From: Candidatus Jettenia sp. AMX2
GTDB lineage: Bacteria > Planctomycetota > Brocadiia > Brocadiales > Brocadiaceae
Direction: 5' to 3'
Assembly (NCBI GenBank): GCA_030583665.1
Contig: CP129469.1
Location: 2,285,043 to 2,349,042, forward strand
Length of the DNA: 64,000 bases
The first letter of the stretch is position 1. Every line of letters begins with the position of its first letter. Below are positions 57,434 through 64,000 of this stretch, in pieces. The notes under the pieces were generated by a model. It made no database searches, was not told the origin of the DNA, and was given only the letters and a program-made list of their open reading frames with translations. Both the position numbers and the translations under genes were made by a program.

Positions 57434-57721
57434 TGGTAATTTCCCCTCTCTTTCTTTGATGATATTTAGTTGGGCAATACGTATTTGCTTTTCTATGCCA
57501 CTTAAACCACCTCAATTATAATACCAAAATAACAATTTTTTAAAATTATCCACAAATTTATTCTAATTTCTTAAAAAACATGTATTTAAAAAACGCATCT
57601 GACTGCAAAGATTTACGCCGGTTCAGCTTTTCTATTAAGAATTTTAGATTAAATTCTATTTATTTGGACATCAGAATATAAAACCGGAATCAGGACTGGA
57701 AATCAAGCTGGCAATTTCTTA
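57434..57721. other. Intergenic region between divergent units
   Basis: About 290 AT-rich bases between the minus-strand redox cluster and the plus-strand candidate RNA. A TATTAT/TATAAT-like sequence on the minus strand around 57515-57524 could be a -10 box for the redox genes, but no good -35 box was found. Confidence 0.3.
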
Positions 57722-57749
57722 TTGACAAGAAAGTATTAATATTTATAAT
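57722..57749 (+). promoter_or_regulatory. Consensus promoter before the candidate RNA
   Basis: TTGACA (57722-57727) and TATAAT (57744-57749), both perfect consensus boxes, 16-base spacer. No protein gene begins in the next 180 bases, so it drives the RNA element below or a leader of the amidase gene. Confidence 0.8.
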
Positions 57750-57755
57750 GCAATT

Positions 57756-57857
57756 ATCTGTGGCAGAAATGGTTGAATCAATACATGAATCACGGTAAAA
57801 CAGCCTTACCGCTGAATGAGTTCTTGAAAGAATATTTTCACGGTAAGGCTTTTTTCA
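57756..57857 (+). ncRNA. Candidate small RNA or attenuator leader
   Basis: Region of about 100 nt from the expected start after a consensus promoter to a strong intrinsic terminator. GCCTTACCG (57803-57811) pairs with CGGTAAGGC (57841-57849), extended inside by TGAA/TTCA, enclosing TTCTT/AAGAA, with six Ts at 57850-57855. The TTACCG arm can instead pair with CGGTAA at 57793-57798, giving a competing hairpin as in attenuators or riboswitches. Two GAATCA direct repeats (57775, 57787) precede it. A 25-codon open frame (57785-57862, MNHGKTALPLNEFLKEYFHG...) overlaps but has no ribosome binding site. No known riboswitch class was recognised. Confidence 0.55.
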
Positions 57858-57937
57858 GATAAAAGCAGCAAATACAGAACTCTTGAAGTTGCAAAAAGCG
57901 ATATTTTTCTAAAATAACCCCCAGGCGACTCTATATT

Positions 57938-58600
57938 ATGTACAAATACGAAAAAGTCATACAATATATCTCGTTAGTCATTATAACAATAACATTGGGA
58001 ATATTTATCTTTTTCCCTTTTTTTGATAAACCAAAAACAGATAGAATTCCTTATTTTATTAATCCTCCCCTGGTTGATAAATTAGACCCGGAATTGAAAC
58101 TTGCGAGTCTCTGTCGTACAGATGTTGATGAAAACCAATGGAAATATATCGTCATTCATCATAGTGCAACGGCAAGAGGTAACGCAGCCGTGTTTGATGA
58201 TTATCATAGAAACAAAAGGGGTTGGGAATATGGACTTGCCTATCATTTTGTAATCGGGAATGGTACGCTATCAGGGAATGGCGAAATTGAGGTTGCAGAG
58301 AGATGGAAGAAGCAAATCCATGGGGCACATACAGCAAACATGGATTATAACCGGGTGGCAATTGGAATATGCCTGGTAGGTGATTTTGAAAACGGAGGCG
58401 GGCCCACAGAGAACCAGTTTGAGTCGCTGGTAAAATTGACACAATACCTTTCCAAAAGATATAGCATCCCCTTATCAAATATAATATTACATAAACAGGT
58501 ACATCAAAAAGGTACGGCTTGCCCCGGGAAAAATTTTCCCTTTGCTGAACTAAAAGCCCGCCTTATGCAAATAGCCCTGAATCCAACCAACCAGATATAG
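57938..58600 (+). CDS. PGRP-type N-acetylmuramoyl-L-alanine amidase
   Basis: Predicted peptidoglycan-cleaving amidase of the Amidase_2/PGRP type. Seen: an N-terminal membrane anchor or uncleaved signal (about 9-30), then IVIHHSATARGN (about 71-82) with the first zinc His, YHFVIGNG, the catalytic-region WKKQIHGAHTANMDYNRVAIG (about 128-149), and GTACPGKNFP, whose Cys takes the third zinc position. 220 aa. It acts at the outer face of the inner membrane. Preceded by the candidate attenuator RNA; no clear ribosome binding site before the ATG. Confidence 0.88.
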   Translation: MYKYEKVIQYISLVIITITLGIFIFFPFFDKPKTDRIPYFINPPLVDKLDPELKLASLCRTDVDENQWKYIVIHHSATARGNAAVFDDYHRNKRGWEYGLAYHFVIGNGTLSGNGEIEVAERWKKQIHGAHTANMDYNRVAIGICLVGDFENGGGPTENQFESLVKLTQYLSKRYSIPLSNIILHKQVHQKGTACPGKNFPFAELKARLMQIALNPTNQI

Positions 58601-59418: not shown

Positions 59419-61632
59419 TTAATCATACGGCTTGTGTACCTGTTGAGTAAGTTTTACTTCATGTTCCTCTTTGATAATTATCGTAGGTTTTAAAAGGATA
59501 ATAAGGTTGGATCTTTTATTCTCCTTCCTGTCCCGCGTAAACAGCTTCTTTATTACAGGTATCTTGGATAAAAGAGGAATACCGCTCGTCAGACGGTCTT
59601 TGTTAATAGAACCCAACCCGCCGATCATCAAGGTGCCCTTATCAGGCACACAGACTGTTACGGATACCTGGGAAACATTTACCCTGGGTAACTGGACTGT
59701 TGTTGTAGGGGGAATATTAACAACGCCTGTACCTCCAGCCGTAAATGTTGTATCCGGATCGACTCCCGTAAAGGTAAATGAATCTATCGCCTCAATCTGA
59801 AAGACAGAGGGGGTTACTTCCAGATAGACATATTTTCTGTCTGCGCTAACTATAGGCCGGACATCAAAAGTGGTTCCTTCGGGTATGGTACCAATAACAG
59901 GCGTTACAATACCCTCGGCAACAGAGGTACTCTGGATATAATTCGTTGTCTTAACAACAGCAATATTTCCGCGCTGGGTATTGGAAAGCGTTATTCGCGG
60001 TGTTGTGAGTATCTCTGAACCTTTACTCTCCTGAACAGCTTTAAGAAATCCTTTTAGCATAGAATCGGTTAAGATAGAATAGTTAAGACTAAGCCCCTGA
60101 ACTGCCTGTGTGCCAAGGTCTCCAACAACATTCTGAGCGCCTGTTTCAATCGTTGCCCTTTCGTTAAAAAACTTCGAGAAATCACTTCCGATATCCTCCA
60201 GGAATTCATCGGTAACAGAGATAAAACGGGCCTCAATACTAACCTGGAGGTTTTGCGAAGACCGTAAAGATGCCAGAAGGTCTTCTATCTGCCCATGAAC
60301 ATGTTTCGTGTTAACGATTACCAGGTCACCGGGCTGACCTATTCGCGCAGTAATACTGCCTTCGCCCTGTCCTGGAACATTGACGCGTCGTTGAGTAACA
60401 CCGGAAATACCAATAACACCTGTACGGGACGACCACGAAAAGGGTTCGATCGTGGTAGCAATCAACTCGATTAAATCTAAAACCCGTTCCGAAGGCTCTT
60501 TCATCTTGACAGTTTCTCTCCTTTGTACACTTAATTGAGAAACAGATGCCGTAATATCAAACTCAAGGGGGTCCTTATCGTCAAGATTGATTAATATATC
60601 CCTTACATCATAAACCCTCAGTTCCATTTTTTGTTTATAAATATGCAGGATGTCGCCTTCTATTACATACTCGTATCCTTTAGGTAAGATATACCTCAAA
60701 CCTGTCCTCAGCGGAACATCTTTTAATTTTAAGGTGATAGGAATACTGCCCGCTTCCGGATCAATAATCATGTTAATATTTGTTTTCTCCCGCAGGAAAG
60801 TAACAATATCCTTTAAGGGTGTCTCTAAAAACTCGAATGAAATAACCGTATTCAGGGCATTCTCAATAGTCTTTGAGAAAGGAACTTCAGGAGGCGCTGT
60901 AACGATCCTGAGCTGCTCTGTTTTTCGTTTGTTTTCTTCAACAATTCTGTTTAAATCGGGAAGAATACGGCCTGAGATTGCTTCCCACTGTTTTTTTGAA
61001 GGAAACCTTACGGTATCCTGATAGGGGACAGATATTTCATGCAGGTATTCGTCACTTTTCAATTTCTCCTGTTTACGGATAGTTTTTAAATATTCGGTAT
61101 TGCCTTCATGCCTTATATCATTTACCCTTCCCTTAATATACAATGCATCTCTGTTTGCCGGATCTTTTTGGAGTATTGAATCTGCGATCACCGCTGCATC
61201 ATCATATCGTTTCTCCTGTATGGCAGAATATGCGATTTGGAGTAAGACGGAGACATCTTCCGGCATTTTTTCTGCCTCAGAAGATTTTTGTAATACTTTT
61301 GGTGCTGCAACTTTCTCATAAAGCTGTTGTTTTGATTCATTTAAAAGCACCGTTGCTTCTTTATTATCAGGTTCCAGAAGGATCGCTAACCCAAGCGCTT
61401 CAATAGCATTCGTATAGTCTCCTGACTCAAAATATACTTTGGCTATTCTCAAGTAACTGTTATTACTTGTTGACGACTTTCTAACCTTAGCAGGTGGTTT
61501 CAATCCTTGTGATATTGTATGTGGTTCAGTATTAAAAAGTTCTGGTTTTTGTGTATCTTGTGTAAAAATTTGTTTTGTTAAAATAAATAACGAAAACACA
61601 TTCACAGCAATAAAGATTATGGTATTTTTCAT
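59419..61632 (-). CDS. Secretin with N-terminal TPR (PilQ/GspD-like)
   Basis: Outer-membrane channel of a pilus or type II/III-like secretion system. 737 residues: signal peptide (1-24), TPR-like helices (about 60-170), an STN/N0-type domain (about 270-325, ISFEFLETPLKDIVTFLREK), N1-type ring, then the secretin core (about 430-715) with the closing TLMIGGLGSINKDRLTSGIP and PLLSKIPVIKKLF. TPR repeats before the secretin resemble those of Akkermansia Amuc_1098-type proteins of the Planctomycetes-Verrucomicrobia group (family placement inferred). It is the last gene of a run that also encodes three inner-membrane proteins. Confidence 0.88.
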   Translation of the reverse strand: MKNTIIFIAVNVFSLFILTKQIFTQDTQKPELFNTEPHTISQGLKPPAKVRKSSTSNNSYLRIAKVYFESGDYTNAIEALGLAILLEPDNKEATVLLNESKQQLYEKVAAPKVLQKSSEAEKMPEDVSVLLQIAYSAIQEKRYDDAAVIADSILQKDPANRDALYIKGRVNDIRHEGNTEYLKTIRKQEKLKSDEYLHEISVPYQDTVRFPSKKQWEAISGRILPDLNRIVEENKRKTEQLRIVTAPPEVPFSKTIENALNTVISFEFLETPLKDIVTFLREKTNINMIIDPEAGSIPITLKLKDVPLRTGLRYILPKGYEYVIEGDILHIYKQKMELRVYDVRDILINLDDKDPLEFDITASVSQLSVQRRETVKMKEPSERVLDLIELIATTIEPFSWSSRTGVIGISGVTQRRVNVPGQGEGSITARIGQPGDLVIVNTKHVHGQIEDLLASLRSSQNLQVSIEARFISVTDEFLEDIGSDFSKFFNERATIETGAQNVVGDLGTQAVQGLSLNYSILTDSMLKGFLKAVQESKGSEILTTPRITLSNTQRGNIAVVKTTNYIQSTSVAEGIVTPVIGTIPEGTTFDVRPIVSADRKYVYLEVTPSVFQIEAIDSFTFTGVDPDTTFTAGGTGVVNIPPTTTVQLPRVNVSQVSVTVCVPDKGTLMIGGLGSINKDRLTSGIPLLSKIPVIKKLFTRDRKENKRSNLIILLKPTIIIKEEHEVKLTQQVHKPYD

Positions 61633-61684
61633 ATAACATTCTCTGGAAAAGGTGGCATAAAAATGCTTAAAATCCTATATAACC

Positions 61685-62467
61685 CTAATTAGTTAACAAG
61701 ACGTCTGCCGTAACCTGGGCAGCGACTGTGCCATCGCTTAAACTTACAGACTCTCCTATCCACAAACCGTAATATTTACCTTCTCTGCACTCAAATACAA
61801 TTTTTGGAGTTGACACCATCTGTATTTCTTCAGTAAGCAAAATCCCTGAAAAGTTACCCTTTTCATCCTGAAGAATGTTTGTCTTTTTGAAAGTTACCGG
61901 TTTCTGTGCAAGAGGAATAATTTCTCTCAGTTTACAGTACGTATCAAAATCTATAACCTCTTTTTTTATGGTTGCTTTTTCACCAATCGCCTTTCCTTGT
62001 TCAATAGCAAAACTCTTTGTCCACCATATATTATTATGGAGTTTCCGAATCTGAATTAATGCCATTTGTGACGTTCCCCCTTTAAAGATAAATTCCGTGT
62101 CAGGTACAGGGGTTTCATGTCCGGAATCTTTCACCGGTATATCTTTTATTATATTCCTGGCAACAATTCCTTCCCGTGAAGACCTGCGAAAAACCCGGGG
62201 TCTTTGCAATACCTGAGCAACAGGAGGAGTTGTAAAACGTAATTCCATGAGTTCTGCGTCATTGAACTGTAGATCAGGAACTGGTGGCTTCCCCGTTCTC
62301 AGTTTTCTGTCCATGGTATCCGATAACAATTGCAATTTTGCATCAACCTCATACGCTTCTCTGTTTAACAGTACCAAGGTATGAATTGTTGTATATATCA
62401 GGTAACACAATACAACACCGAAAACAAATTTTTCCATATGCCTGAACAGGATATTTTTTATGTCCAT
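61685..62467 (-). CDS. Inner-membrane pilus-system protein (Amuc_1099-like?)
   Basis: 260 residues: N-terminal membrane helix (about 11-33, MEKFVFGVVLCYLIYTTIHT), a proline-rich linker, then a soluble domain in the periplasm (about 100-258). The sequence does not show a clear PilP motif, but position between an O-like and a secretin gene fits the role of PilP or Amuc_1099, connecting inner membrane to secretin. Assignment is by context. It is 52 bases upstream of the secretin gene in transcription order. Confidence 0.6.
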   Translation of the reverse strand: MDIKNILFRHMEKFVFGVVLCYLIYTTIHTLVLLNREAYEVDAKLQLLSDTMDRKLRTGKPPVPDLQFNDAELMELRFTTPPVAQVLQRPRVFRRSSREGIVARNIIKDIPVKDSGHETPVPDTEFIFKGGTSQMALIQIRKLHNNIWWTKSFAIEQGKAIGEKATIKKEVIDFDTYCKLREIIPLAQKPVTFKKTNILQDEKGNFSGILLTEEIQMVSTPKIVFECREGKYYGLWIGESVSLSDGTVAAQVTADVLLTN

Positions 62468-62485
62468 GTTTTTATCAAAAACAGT

Positions 62486-63373
62486 TTATGCATTATAATC
62501 AATAACATATACATCAAGAGTAACACCGACAACCGGATCAGGTAAGGAACCATCTACATCCTGAGTCAAAACATCCCCATGTTTCAAAGTAAAACCGGAA
62601 TCATCGTTTTTATCCGTGCTTACAATAACAATGCCTTCTATAACAAACGGAATATCCGAGCCAAGAATCTCACGAAGAAGGAATTGAATGCGGCCCGCCT
62701 GTAATTCAACCTTAAGGGTAAGGGGGATTGCAGTATAAAGTTGTGCAGGCGAAGGGTTATATGAATACGGTACCTCCCTGAAATTAATATTTTCGAGCTT
62801 TGTTATTCCTTTGGTCTTTATCACAGCATTAATGAGCGTCTCTAAAATCCAGAACCTTTTTTGTGCAGGCAGGATGGCATCCCACGATGGAATATCAGAC
62901 CCCCATTTCTGAAATGGTAGGGCATTTTCGTGAAAGATGATTTTGTTCTCTTGTATTTTTACTAACAGCGCAGAAGCCCTTTTTAAATATTCACTTCTCC
63001 AAAGCGCCTCGTCATCTATAGTAACATGACCCCTTTCAGGGTCTTCAATTACAAAAACGGCTTCCAGCAGATCGTCCTTCCTTTTCAGAAACGACCTGCA
63101 TTTTTCAACCTCTGCCTTATAAAGTTCAGTCTCTGCCTTTTTGGATTCAATCCAATGAGAATTATAAAGATCTTTTTTTAAGGCATACTTTTCTAAGGTA
63201 TCAGCCAAATCCTGTAAACCGTTATACCTCTTTGTACACTGTTTTGAAAGCGGGTAAACAACCAAAAGCAAAGAAACCATCAAGAGTAAAAAGATAATGC
63301 CTGTCAATATCCAGAAACGGAAGACTCTGGTAAAGAGGTCTGATAAAAACTTCCTGAGTTGTGAAGAATTCAT
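62486..63373 (-). CDS. Inner-membrane pilus-system protein (PilO-like/Amuc_1100-like?)
   Basis: 295 residues: short cytoplasmic start, membrane helix (about 18-42), a long charged coiled coil (about 45-110) and a C-terminal mixed domain ending with VVGVTLDVYVID, the layout of PilO and of Amuc_1100-like proteins. In PilMNOP systems this protein dimerises with PilN to link PilM to the secretin. Seven bases separate it from the PilN-like gene upstream. Primary sequence is too diverged for a certain name. Confidence 0.6.
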   Translation of the reverse strand: MNSSQLRKFLSDLFTRVFRFWILTGIIFLLLMVSLLLVVYPLSKQCTKRYNGLQDLADTLEKYALKKDLYNSHWIESKKAETELYKAEVEKCRSFLKRKDDLLEAVFVIEDPERGHVTIDDEALWRSEYLKRASALLVKIQENKIIFHENALPFQKWGSDIPSWDAILPAQKRFWILETLINAVIKTKGITKLENINFREVPYSYNPSPAQLYTAIPLTLKVELQAGRIQFLLREILGSDIPFVIEGIVIVSTDKNDDSGFTLKHGDVLTQDVDGSLPDPVVGVTLDVYVIDYNA

Positions 63374-63379
63374 ATTCTG

Positions 63380-64000
63380 TTACCTTTTCGACAACGATTC
63401 AATTTCAGTCCGGATTTCATCCGGTGTTTTTACAAGCCAGCGTATCTCAAAAGCGATATAACTTCCCGGTTCATCTTTTTGTCCTACCTGATAACTGGAA
63501 CCGGGGACAATCTCTACATTTCTGAATGCCGGAATGTTTTGATCAAAAAGGGTCAAACCCTGGATAGGCTTCAGGATATGCTCCCCCACAAATCCCATCC
63601 TCGGGTCCCTGCTTTCCCCTTTCATCTCCATAAGCAGTAATTTTCTAGGGGGTACAGATTTTTTTGGCGCCGGTGTCCTTCTTTGATTTTGAAAGAATTT
63701 AGGCTCCGTTTGCTTCGGCACCCCTTCACTTTTTAAAGTATTTTCATCTACCCATGAAGAACGAATGCTCGTTATAGATACATTATAGGGTATCAAAGGC
63801 AGCAGTCTGTCCAGTGTTTCCATCCAAAAAAACCTTGAAGAGTCAATAGAAGATATAACATTAAGTGCCGATTTATTTGCTTGTGCCTGAGTTTCAGCAA
63901 TTTTGTAGTTCCTTTCGAATTCCCTGACGTCTTGTAATTTCCTTTGATGATACTTATAAGAATTATCAAAATATTTAATTCTCGTATGCGAACCATAATA
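63380..64000 (-). CDS. PilN-like pilus assembly protein, 5' end outside window
   Basis: The frame is open from its stop codon at 63380 through the right edge (64000), so about 206 residues of a longer protein are visible and the start lies beyond. Seen: a coiled coil near the edge (HQRKLQDVREFERNYKIAET), then SSRFFWMETLDRLLPLIPYN, a block typical of PilN-like proteins (RxFWxxxLDxLxxxLPxxV), and a C-terminal beta-rich domain. It is the first visible gene of the pilus/secretin run. A full PilM gene would be expected next, off the window. Confidence 0.68.
   Translation of the reverse strand, partial: YYGSHTRIKYFDNSYKYHQRKLQDVREFERNYKIAETQAQANKSALNVISSIDSSRFFWMETLDRLLPLIPYNVSITSIRSSWVDENTLKSEGVPKQTEPKFFQNQRRTPAPKKSVPPRKLLLMEMKGESRDPRMGFVGEHILKPIQGLTLFDQNIPAFRNVEIVPGSSYQVGQKDEPGSYIAFEIRWLVKTPDEIRTEIESLSKR

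What the first reader, a model, noticed from the sequence alone, without database searches (positions are those of the whole stretch)
57722..57857. Candidate structured RNA with perfect promoter and competing terminator hairpins
Seen: consensus -35 and -10 boxes (16-base spacer), then about 50 bases and a long stem (GCCTTACCG with CGGTAAGGC, extended inside) ending in six Ts. The TTACCG strand can also pair with an upstream CGGTAA, giving a mutually exclusive hairpin. No protein gene begins before 57938, so this is either a roughly 100-nt small RNA or an attenuator for the PGRP amidase. A 25-codon frame with a doubled HGK motif overlaps it. I recognise no known riboswitch family.
Basis: partly seen in the sequence, partly recalled or inferred. 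Interest (0 to 1): 0.62.

Follow-up and report, generated by a model that had tools for sequence, protein, structure and literature searches.

The report
Riboswitch remnant that lost its sensor
Upstream of a cell-wall amidase gene in an anammox bacterium, a c-di-GMP riboswitch that many related species still carry has lost its ligand-sensing half but kept its promoter and its transcription-stopping hairpin, so it probably makes a short RNA and throttles the gene without sensing the signal.

Summary
The observed sequence is real: a 12/12 sigma-70 promoter (57722-57749), a ~50-nt leader, and a strong intrinsic terminator (57802-57855) 80 nt before an Amidase_2 (PGRP) gene. It is not an unknown riboswitch. 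The terminator belongs to a family found across the anammox family Brocadiaceae, where nearly every copy is the expression platform of a c-di-GMP-I riboswitch (RF01051/RF03167). At the PGRP locus itself, 19 of 31 readable relatives carry an intact c-di-GMP-I riboswitch, close upstream of the gene in 17. In the window's genome (a Ca. Loosdrechtia relative), G001, three Jettenia species and G004, the promoter and terminator survive but the aptamer does not. It is degenerate but detectable in Jettenia (22-28 bits against 63-82 when intact) and unrecognisable in the window, where about 50 nt remain. The terminator stem has compensatory changes (ancestral CTG/CAG; window CCG/CGG; G001 CAG/CTG), so termination is probably still selected. 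The competing CGGTAA:TTACCG hairpin exists but is weak (-7.8 against -23 kcal/mol) and in energy no better than shuffles. Best reading: an aptamer-less riboswitch relic, now a ligand-independent terminator and ~100-nt RNA. Rewiring into a new attenuator is possible but unproven.

The parts
57722..57749 (+). sigma-70 promoter TTGACA-16-TATAAT, orthologous to the PGRP promoter of most relatives
   Evidence: 12/12 match; the same 16-nt-spaced 12/12 promoter upstream of PGRP orthologs in G001, Jettenia, G003, g6, Kuenenia-like and most Brocadia-like genomes
57756..57801 (+). leader in place of the lost c-di-GMP-I aptamer (start site inferred from the promoter)
   Evidence: no Rfam match up to E=10 that is not chance; aptamer model R2 scores -1.9 bits or less here, against 63-82 bits for intact orthologs
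57758..57763 (+). CTGTGG, can pair with TCACGG (57790-57795): possible strand 1 of an attenuator
   Evidence: RNA folding only
57790..57798 (+). TCACGGTAA, exact copy of part of the terminator 3' arm; can pair with 57806-57811 (possible antiterminator strand)
   Evidence: sequence; folding -7.8 kcal/mol; duplex shuffle p=0.11; 9-nt identity p=0.002, post hoc
57802..57855 (+). intrinsic terminator, homologous to terminators of c-di-GMP-I riboswitches
   Evidence: 57.3 bits, E=2.5e-12 with a model built without the window and G001 sequences; stem covariation
57785..57862 (+). 25-codon open frame over the terminator, judged incidental
57938..58600 (+). downstream gene: PGRP/Amidase_2 N-acetylmuramoyl-L-alanine amidase
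   Evidence: PF01510 E=2.8e-22; orthologs in 32 of 33 family genomes

Best explanation
The element is what remains of a c-di-GMP-I (GEMM-I) riboswitch that controls the PGRP amidase gene in other anammox bacteria. In those relatives (inferred from structure) c-di-GMP binding stabilises the aptamer, whose last helix uses the 5' arm of the terminator, so the terminator cannot form and the amidase is transcribed. In the window's lineage the aptamer degenerated and most of it was lost, while the promoter and terminator were kept. The RNA now starts near 57756 and mostly ends near 57855 regardless of c-di-GMP, giving a ~100-nt RNA, and the amidase gets only read-through or a weak internal start. 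Shown by computation: orthology, loss of the aptamer, retention and compensatory evolution of the terminator. Inferred: transcription, low ligand-independent expression, loss of c-di-GMP control.
For: Blastn with the window element finds hairpins in 17 of 39 relatives. Of the 27 of these fetched as hairpin loci (L002-L025, L027, L029, L030), all but L006, L014 and L017 carry RF01051/RF03167. PGRP orthologs in 19 family genomes carry an intact c-di-GMP-I aptamer upstream. Flanking genes are syntenic in G001 and Jettenia (rubrerythrin-like, 63-aa orf, PGRP, 115-aa orf, PilQ-like). Promoter and terminator are the conserved islands between the window and G001/Jettenia. Aptamer decay series: 63-82 bits intact, 22-28 bits in three Jettenia, nothing in the window or G001. 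A terminator model without the window hits it at 57.3 bits. Stem: 5 of 10 pairs with two-sided changes, 18 cells, 0/500 shuffles. The genome still has 13 RF01051 matches over cut-off and 11 GGDEF matches, so the loss is specific to this locus.
Against: No expression data. The remaining leader cannot be aligned significantly to any aptamer (p = 0.17 to 0.97), so deletion of the aptamer is inferred from position, not seen as a junction. A 9-nt repeat that creates a competing hairpin may mean that regulation continues in another form. A few terminators of this family also stand at sites without an aptamer (own 174248, Kuenenia-like G010 1205971), so the hairpin alone does not prove riboswitch descent.
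Confidence: 0.77

Rival explanations
1. Rewired attenuator: after loss of the aptamer the leader became a new 1:2 / 2:3 / 3:4 attenuator, in which TCACGGTAA (a copy of the terminator 3' arm) pairs with the terminator 5' arm and something other than c-di-GMP (ribosome, protein, small RNA or another ligand) decides between the hairpins.
For: 9-nt exact repeat p=0.002; alternative hairpin -7.8 kcal/mol and 1:2 pairing -6.4 kcal/mol; a promoter and the terminator kept in all six members of the aptamer-less group.
Against: Duplex energy not beyond shuffles in the window (p=0.11) or G001 (p=0.15); terminator favoured by 15 kcal/mol; leader not conserved between the two species of the genus (p=0.94); no supported leader peptide.
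Confidence: 0.13
2. Independent small RNA: the conserved product is the ~100-nt RNA itself, acting in trans, and its position before the amidase gene is incidental.
For: Consensus promoter and strong terminator; the own genome holds another family hairpin at 174248 without an aptamer.
Against: Orthologous position is a cis riboswitch for the same gene in 19 relatives; the leader, which would hold a seed region, is not conserved between species.
Confidence: 0.06
3. A still functional but diverged aptamer (altered c-di-GMP aptamer or a new small aptamer) sits in the ~45 nt before the terminator.
For: Jettenia keeps a recognisable but altered aptamer (GGCAG..GGACAAAAG instead of GGCAAACC..GGACGCAAAG).
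Against: Window leader scores below zero with the aptamer model, has no Rfam match, is less than half as long as an intact aptamer region, and is not shared with G001.
Confidence: 0.04

Closest known systems
c-di-GMP-I (GEMM-I) riboswitch, Rfam RF01051 / RF03167
   Same: Same locus, promoter and terminator as the c-di-GMP-I riboswitches before PGRP orthologs in 19 relatives; terminator 5' arm is the strand that the aptamer's last helix would use
   Different: The ligand-binding core (GGCAAACC, P2 hairpin, GGACGCAAAG) and most of the last helix are absent
Transcription attenuators with 1:2, 2:3, 3:4 strands
   Same: A strand upstream can pair with the terminator 5' arm and exclude the terminator
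   Different: No supported leader peptide, binding protein or ligand; alternative hairpin weak and not conserved
Intrinsic terminators / short terminated leader RNAs
   Same: G+C-rich stem, six T, own promoter, expected ~100-nt product
   Different: Homologous across many loci in the family because the loci share a riboswitch expression platform

Membership tests
c-di-GMP-I riboswitch (RF01051) | matches the Rfam covariance model above gathering score | tested here: not met
   no RF01051 match in window, none at E up to 10 in 57600-58000 or in L001
c-di-GMP-I riboswitch (RF01051) | conserved core GGCAAACC / P2 hairpin with GNRA-like loop / GGACGCAAAG | tested here: not met
   family-specific model R2 scores -1.9 bits at the leader, against 63-82 bits in intact orthologs
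c-di-GMP-I riboswitch (RF01051) | expression platform: terminator whose 5' arm doubles as aptamer strand | tested here: met
   terminator homologous; the shared 5' arm is seen in intact orthologs
c-di-GMP-I riboswitch (RF01051) | binds c-di-GMP and changes termination | not testable with these tools
   needs in-line probing and transcription assays
Descent from the PGRP-locus c-di-GMP-I riboswitch | orthologous position and retained flanking elements | tested here: met
   synteny, promoter, terminator, tree
Peptide-coding attenuator leader | conserved short leader peptide | tested here: not met
   similarity of the 25-aa frame is limited to terminator DNA in mixed frames and strands
Small regulatory RNA | expressed ~100-nt transcript | not testable with these tools
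   no RNA-seq at hand

The most novel reading that the evidence does not exclude
After losing its c-di-GMP aptamer, the riboswitch was rewired into a new regulator: a copy of the terminator's own 3' arm (TCACGGTAA) serves as an antiterminator strand, so an expression platform outlived its sensor and acquired another input.
Probability: 0.13. Interest if true: 0.7.

Novelty: new variant of a known kind. Interest (0 to 1): 0.42.

Why it matters
Riboswitch loss is usually seen only as absence. Here one gene locus in one bacterial family shows intact, degenerate (Jettenia), aptamer-less with terminator kept (window, G001, G004), promoter-only (G003) and fully erased (G002) states. That allows a direct test of whether an expression platform can persist and keep functioning after its sensor is gone. 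It also shows c-di-GMP control of a cell-wall amidase as a likely ancestral trait in anammox bacteria, lost repeatedly.

Tried and rejected
Known RNA family in the window: none. Mobile or REP-like hairpin repeat: considered when blast returned dozens of copies, rejected because almost all of those examined sit after c-di-GMP-I aptamers. Leader peptide MNHGKTALPLNEFLKEYFHGKAFFR: rejected, similarity reflects terminator DNA. Antiterminator pairing as a proven switch: not supported by duplex shuffles. Aligning the remaining leader to the aptamers of relatives: best case TGGCAG..AAATGGTTGA against Jettenia, p=0.17, not significant. Literature on c-di-GMP riboswitches in anammox bacteria, or on riboswitch relics: nothing relevant found in the held library; a c-di-GMP evolution review mentions riboswitches only briefly (PMC10333796).

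Full report
Observation. TTGACA (57722-57727) and TATAAT (57744-57749) with a 16-nt spacer are the only 12/12 match in 2.6 kb. The hairpin 57802-57850 with six T folds at about -23 kcal/mol on its own, and the 102-nt transcript at -30.6 (z = -3.57, 0/200 shuffles). The next gene on that strand is an Amidase_2 (PGRP) gene at 57938.

What the hairpin is. Blastn of the element against 39 relatives gave hairpin matches in 17 genomes, most over query positions 97-156, the terminator. When the surrounding loci were scanned with Rfam, all but a few carried a c-di-GMP-I riboswitch (RF01051 or RF03167) whose last helix ends inside the hairpin's 5' arm. The hairpin is therefore the expression platform (intrinsic terminator) shared by the many paralogous c-di-GMP-I riboswitches of this family. 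The window lies in a 3.46-Mb single-contig genome.

Orthologous locus. PGRP orthologs occur in 32 of 33 family genomes. Of 31 with readable upstream DNA, 19 have a c-di-GMP-I aptamer above the Rfam cut-off upstream of the gene. In 17 it stands between a consensus or near-consensus promoter and the terminator directly before the gene; in two genomes of genus g9 it lies about 400 nt or more further away. Flanking genes are the same in the window, G001 and three Jettenia genomes. So the element occupies the place of a c-di-GMP-I riboswitch.

Loss of the aptamer. The window genome, G001, the three Jettenia and G004 have no Rfam match at this place even at E up to 10. A family-specific aptamer model (R2) scores 63-82 bits on intact orthologs, 22-28 bits on the three Jettenia, and nothing meaningful in the window or G001. 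The Jettenia sequences have GGCAG..GGACAAAAG where the intact core has GGCAAACC..GGACGCAAAG. In the window about 50 nt remain between the -10 box and the terminator, against 118-132 nt in G001, Jettenia and two intact orthologs. A tree of PGRP proteins puts the window with G001 and the Jettenia species (95/89; with G004 added at 92/80). Loss is scattered: at least 4 changes on the tree. G003 keeps only the promoter and G002 shows neither. The own genome still has 13 RF01051 matches over cut-off and 11 GGDEF matches, so c-di-GMP signalling has probably not been lost.

Retention of the terminator. A model built without the window and G001 still finds the window terminator at 57.3 bits (E = 2.5e-12) and the G001 one at 20.4 bits (E = 0.0036). 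Over 23 PGRP-locus terminators, 94.8% of cells in the outer 10 pairs are paired, 5 pairs show changes on both sides and 18 cells are two-sided changes, with 0 of 500 shuffles as high for the percentage paired, the two-sided cells and the covariation score, and 8 of 500 for the number of two-sided pairs. In the ninth pair most sequences have T-A, the window C-G and G001 A-T. This argues that termination is still under selection without the aptamer. Related sequences inflate such counts.

Competing hairpin. CGGTAA:TTACCG can form (-7.8 kcal/mol) but the terminator is far more stable, and the duplex energy is matched by 11% of shuffled leaders. The exact repeat TCACGGTAA is unlikely by shuffling (p = 0.002), but this was tested after being noticed. 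It also explains the doubled HGK in the 25-codon frame, which has no other support.

Mechanism. In intact relatives the aptamer's last helix and the terminator share one strand, so ligand binding should prevent termination (an ON switch; inferred). In the window the sensor is gone, so the default outcome is termination near 57855 whatever the c-di-GMP level, with the amidase expressed by read-through. Whether a new input acts through the repeat is open.

Verdict. A known kind of element in a derived, sensor-less state: explained by descent, moderately interesting as a relic that still shows selection on its terminator.

Noticed in passing
G000:C1:2350278-2350369 (about 1.2 kb beyond the window end), minus strand: An intact c-di-GMP-I riboswitch lies just outside the window, upstream of the pilus-like operon that fills 59419-63996; a c-di-GMP-I match stands about 7 kb from PGRP in G001 and Jettenia as well.
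   Followed up: partly
L047, L048, L049 (Jettenia), about 1258-1310: An altered c-di-GMP-I-like aptamer (GGCAG..GGACAAAAG) is shared by three Jettenia species before PGRP; it may be decaying or have changed ligand.
   Followed up: partly
G000:C1:174248-174293; G010:C1:1205971-1206024; G012:C1:3535776-3535829; G001:C33:78173-78224: Terminators of the same family without a recognisable c-di-GMP-I aptamer at other loci; possible further relics or ordinary terminators.
   Followed up: partly
Brocadiaceae genomes: Terminator sequence, not only structure, is strongly conserved across many paralogous c-di-GMP-I riboswitches per genome, suggesting spread of whole riboswitch modules by duplication.
   Followed up: no
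L059 (G020:C1:752716-753354): A second PGRP copy in a Brocadia-like genome has no riboswitch, while the other copy in that genome does.
   Followed up: no
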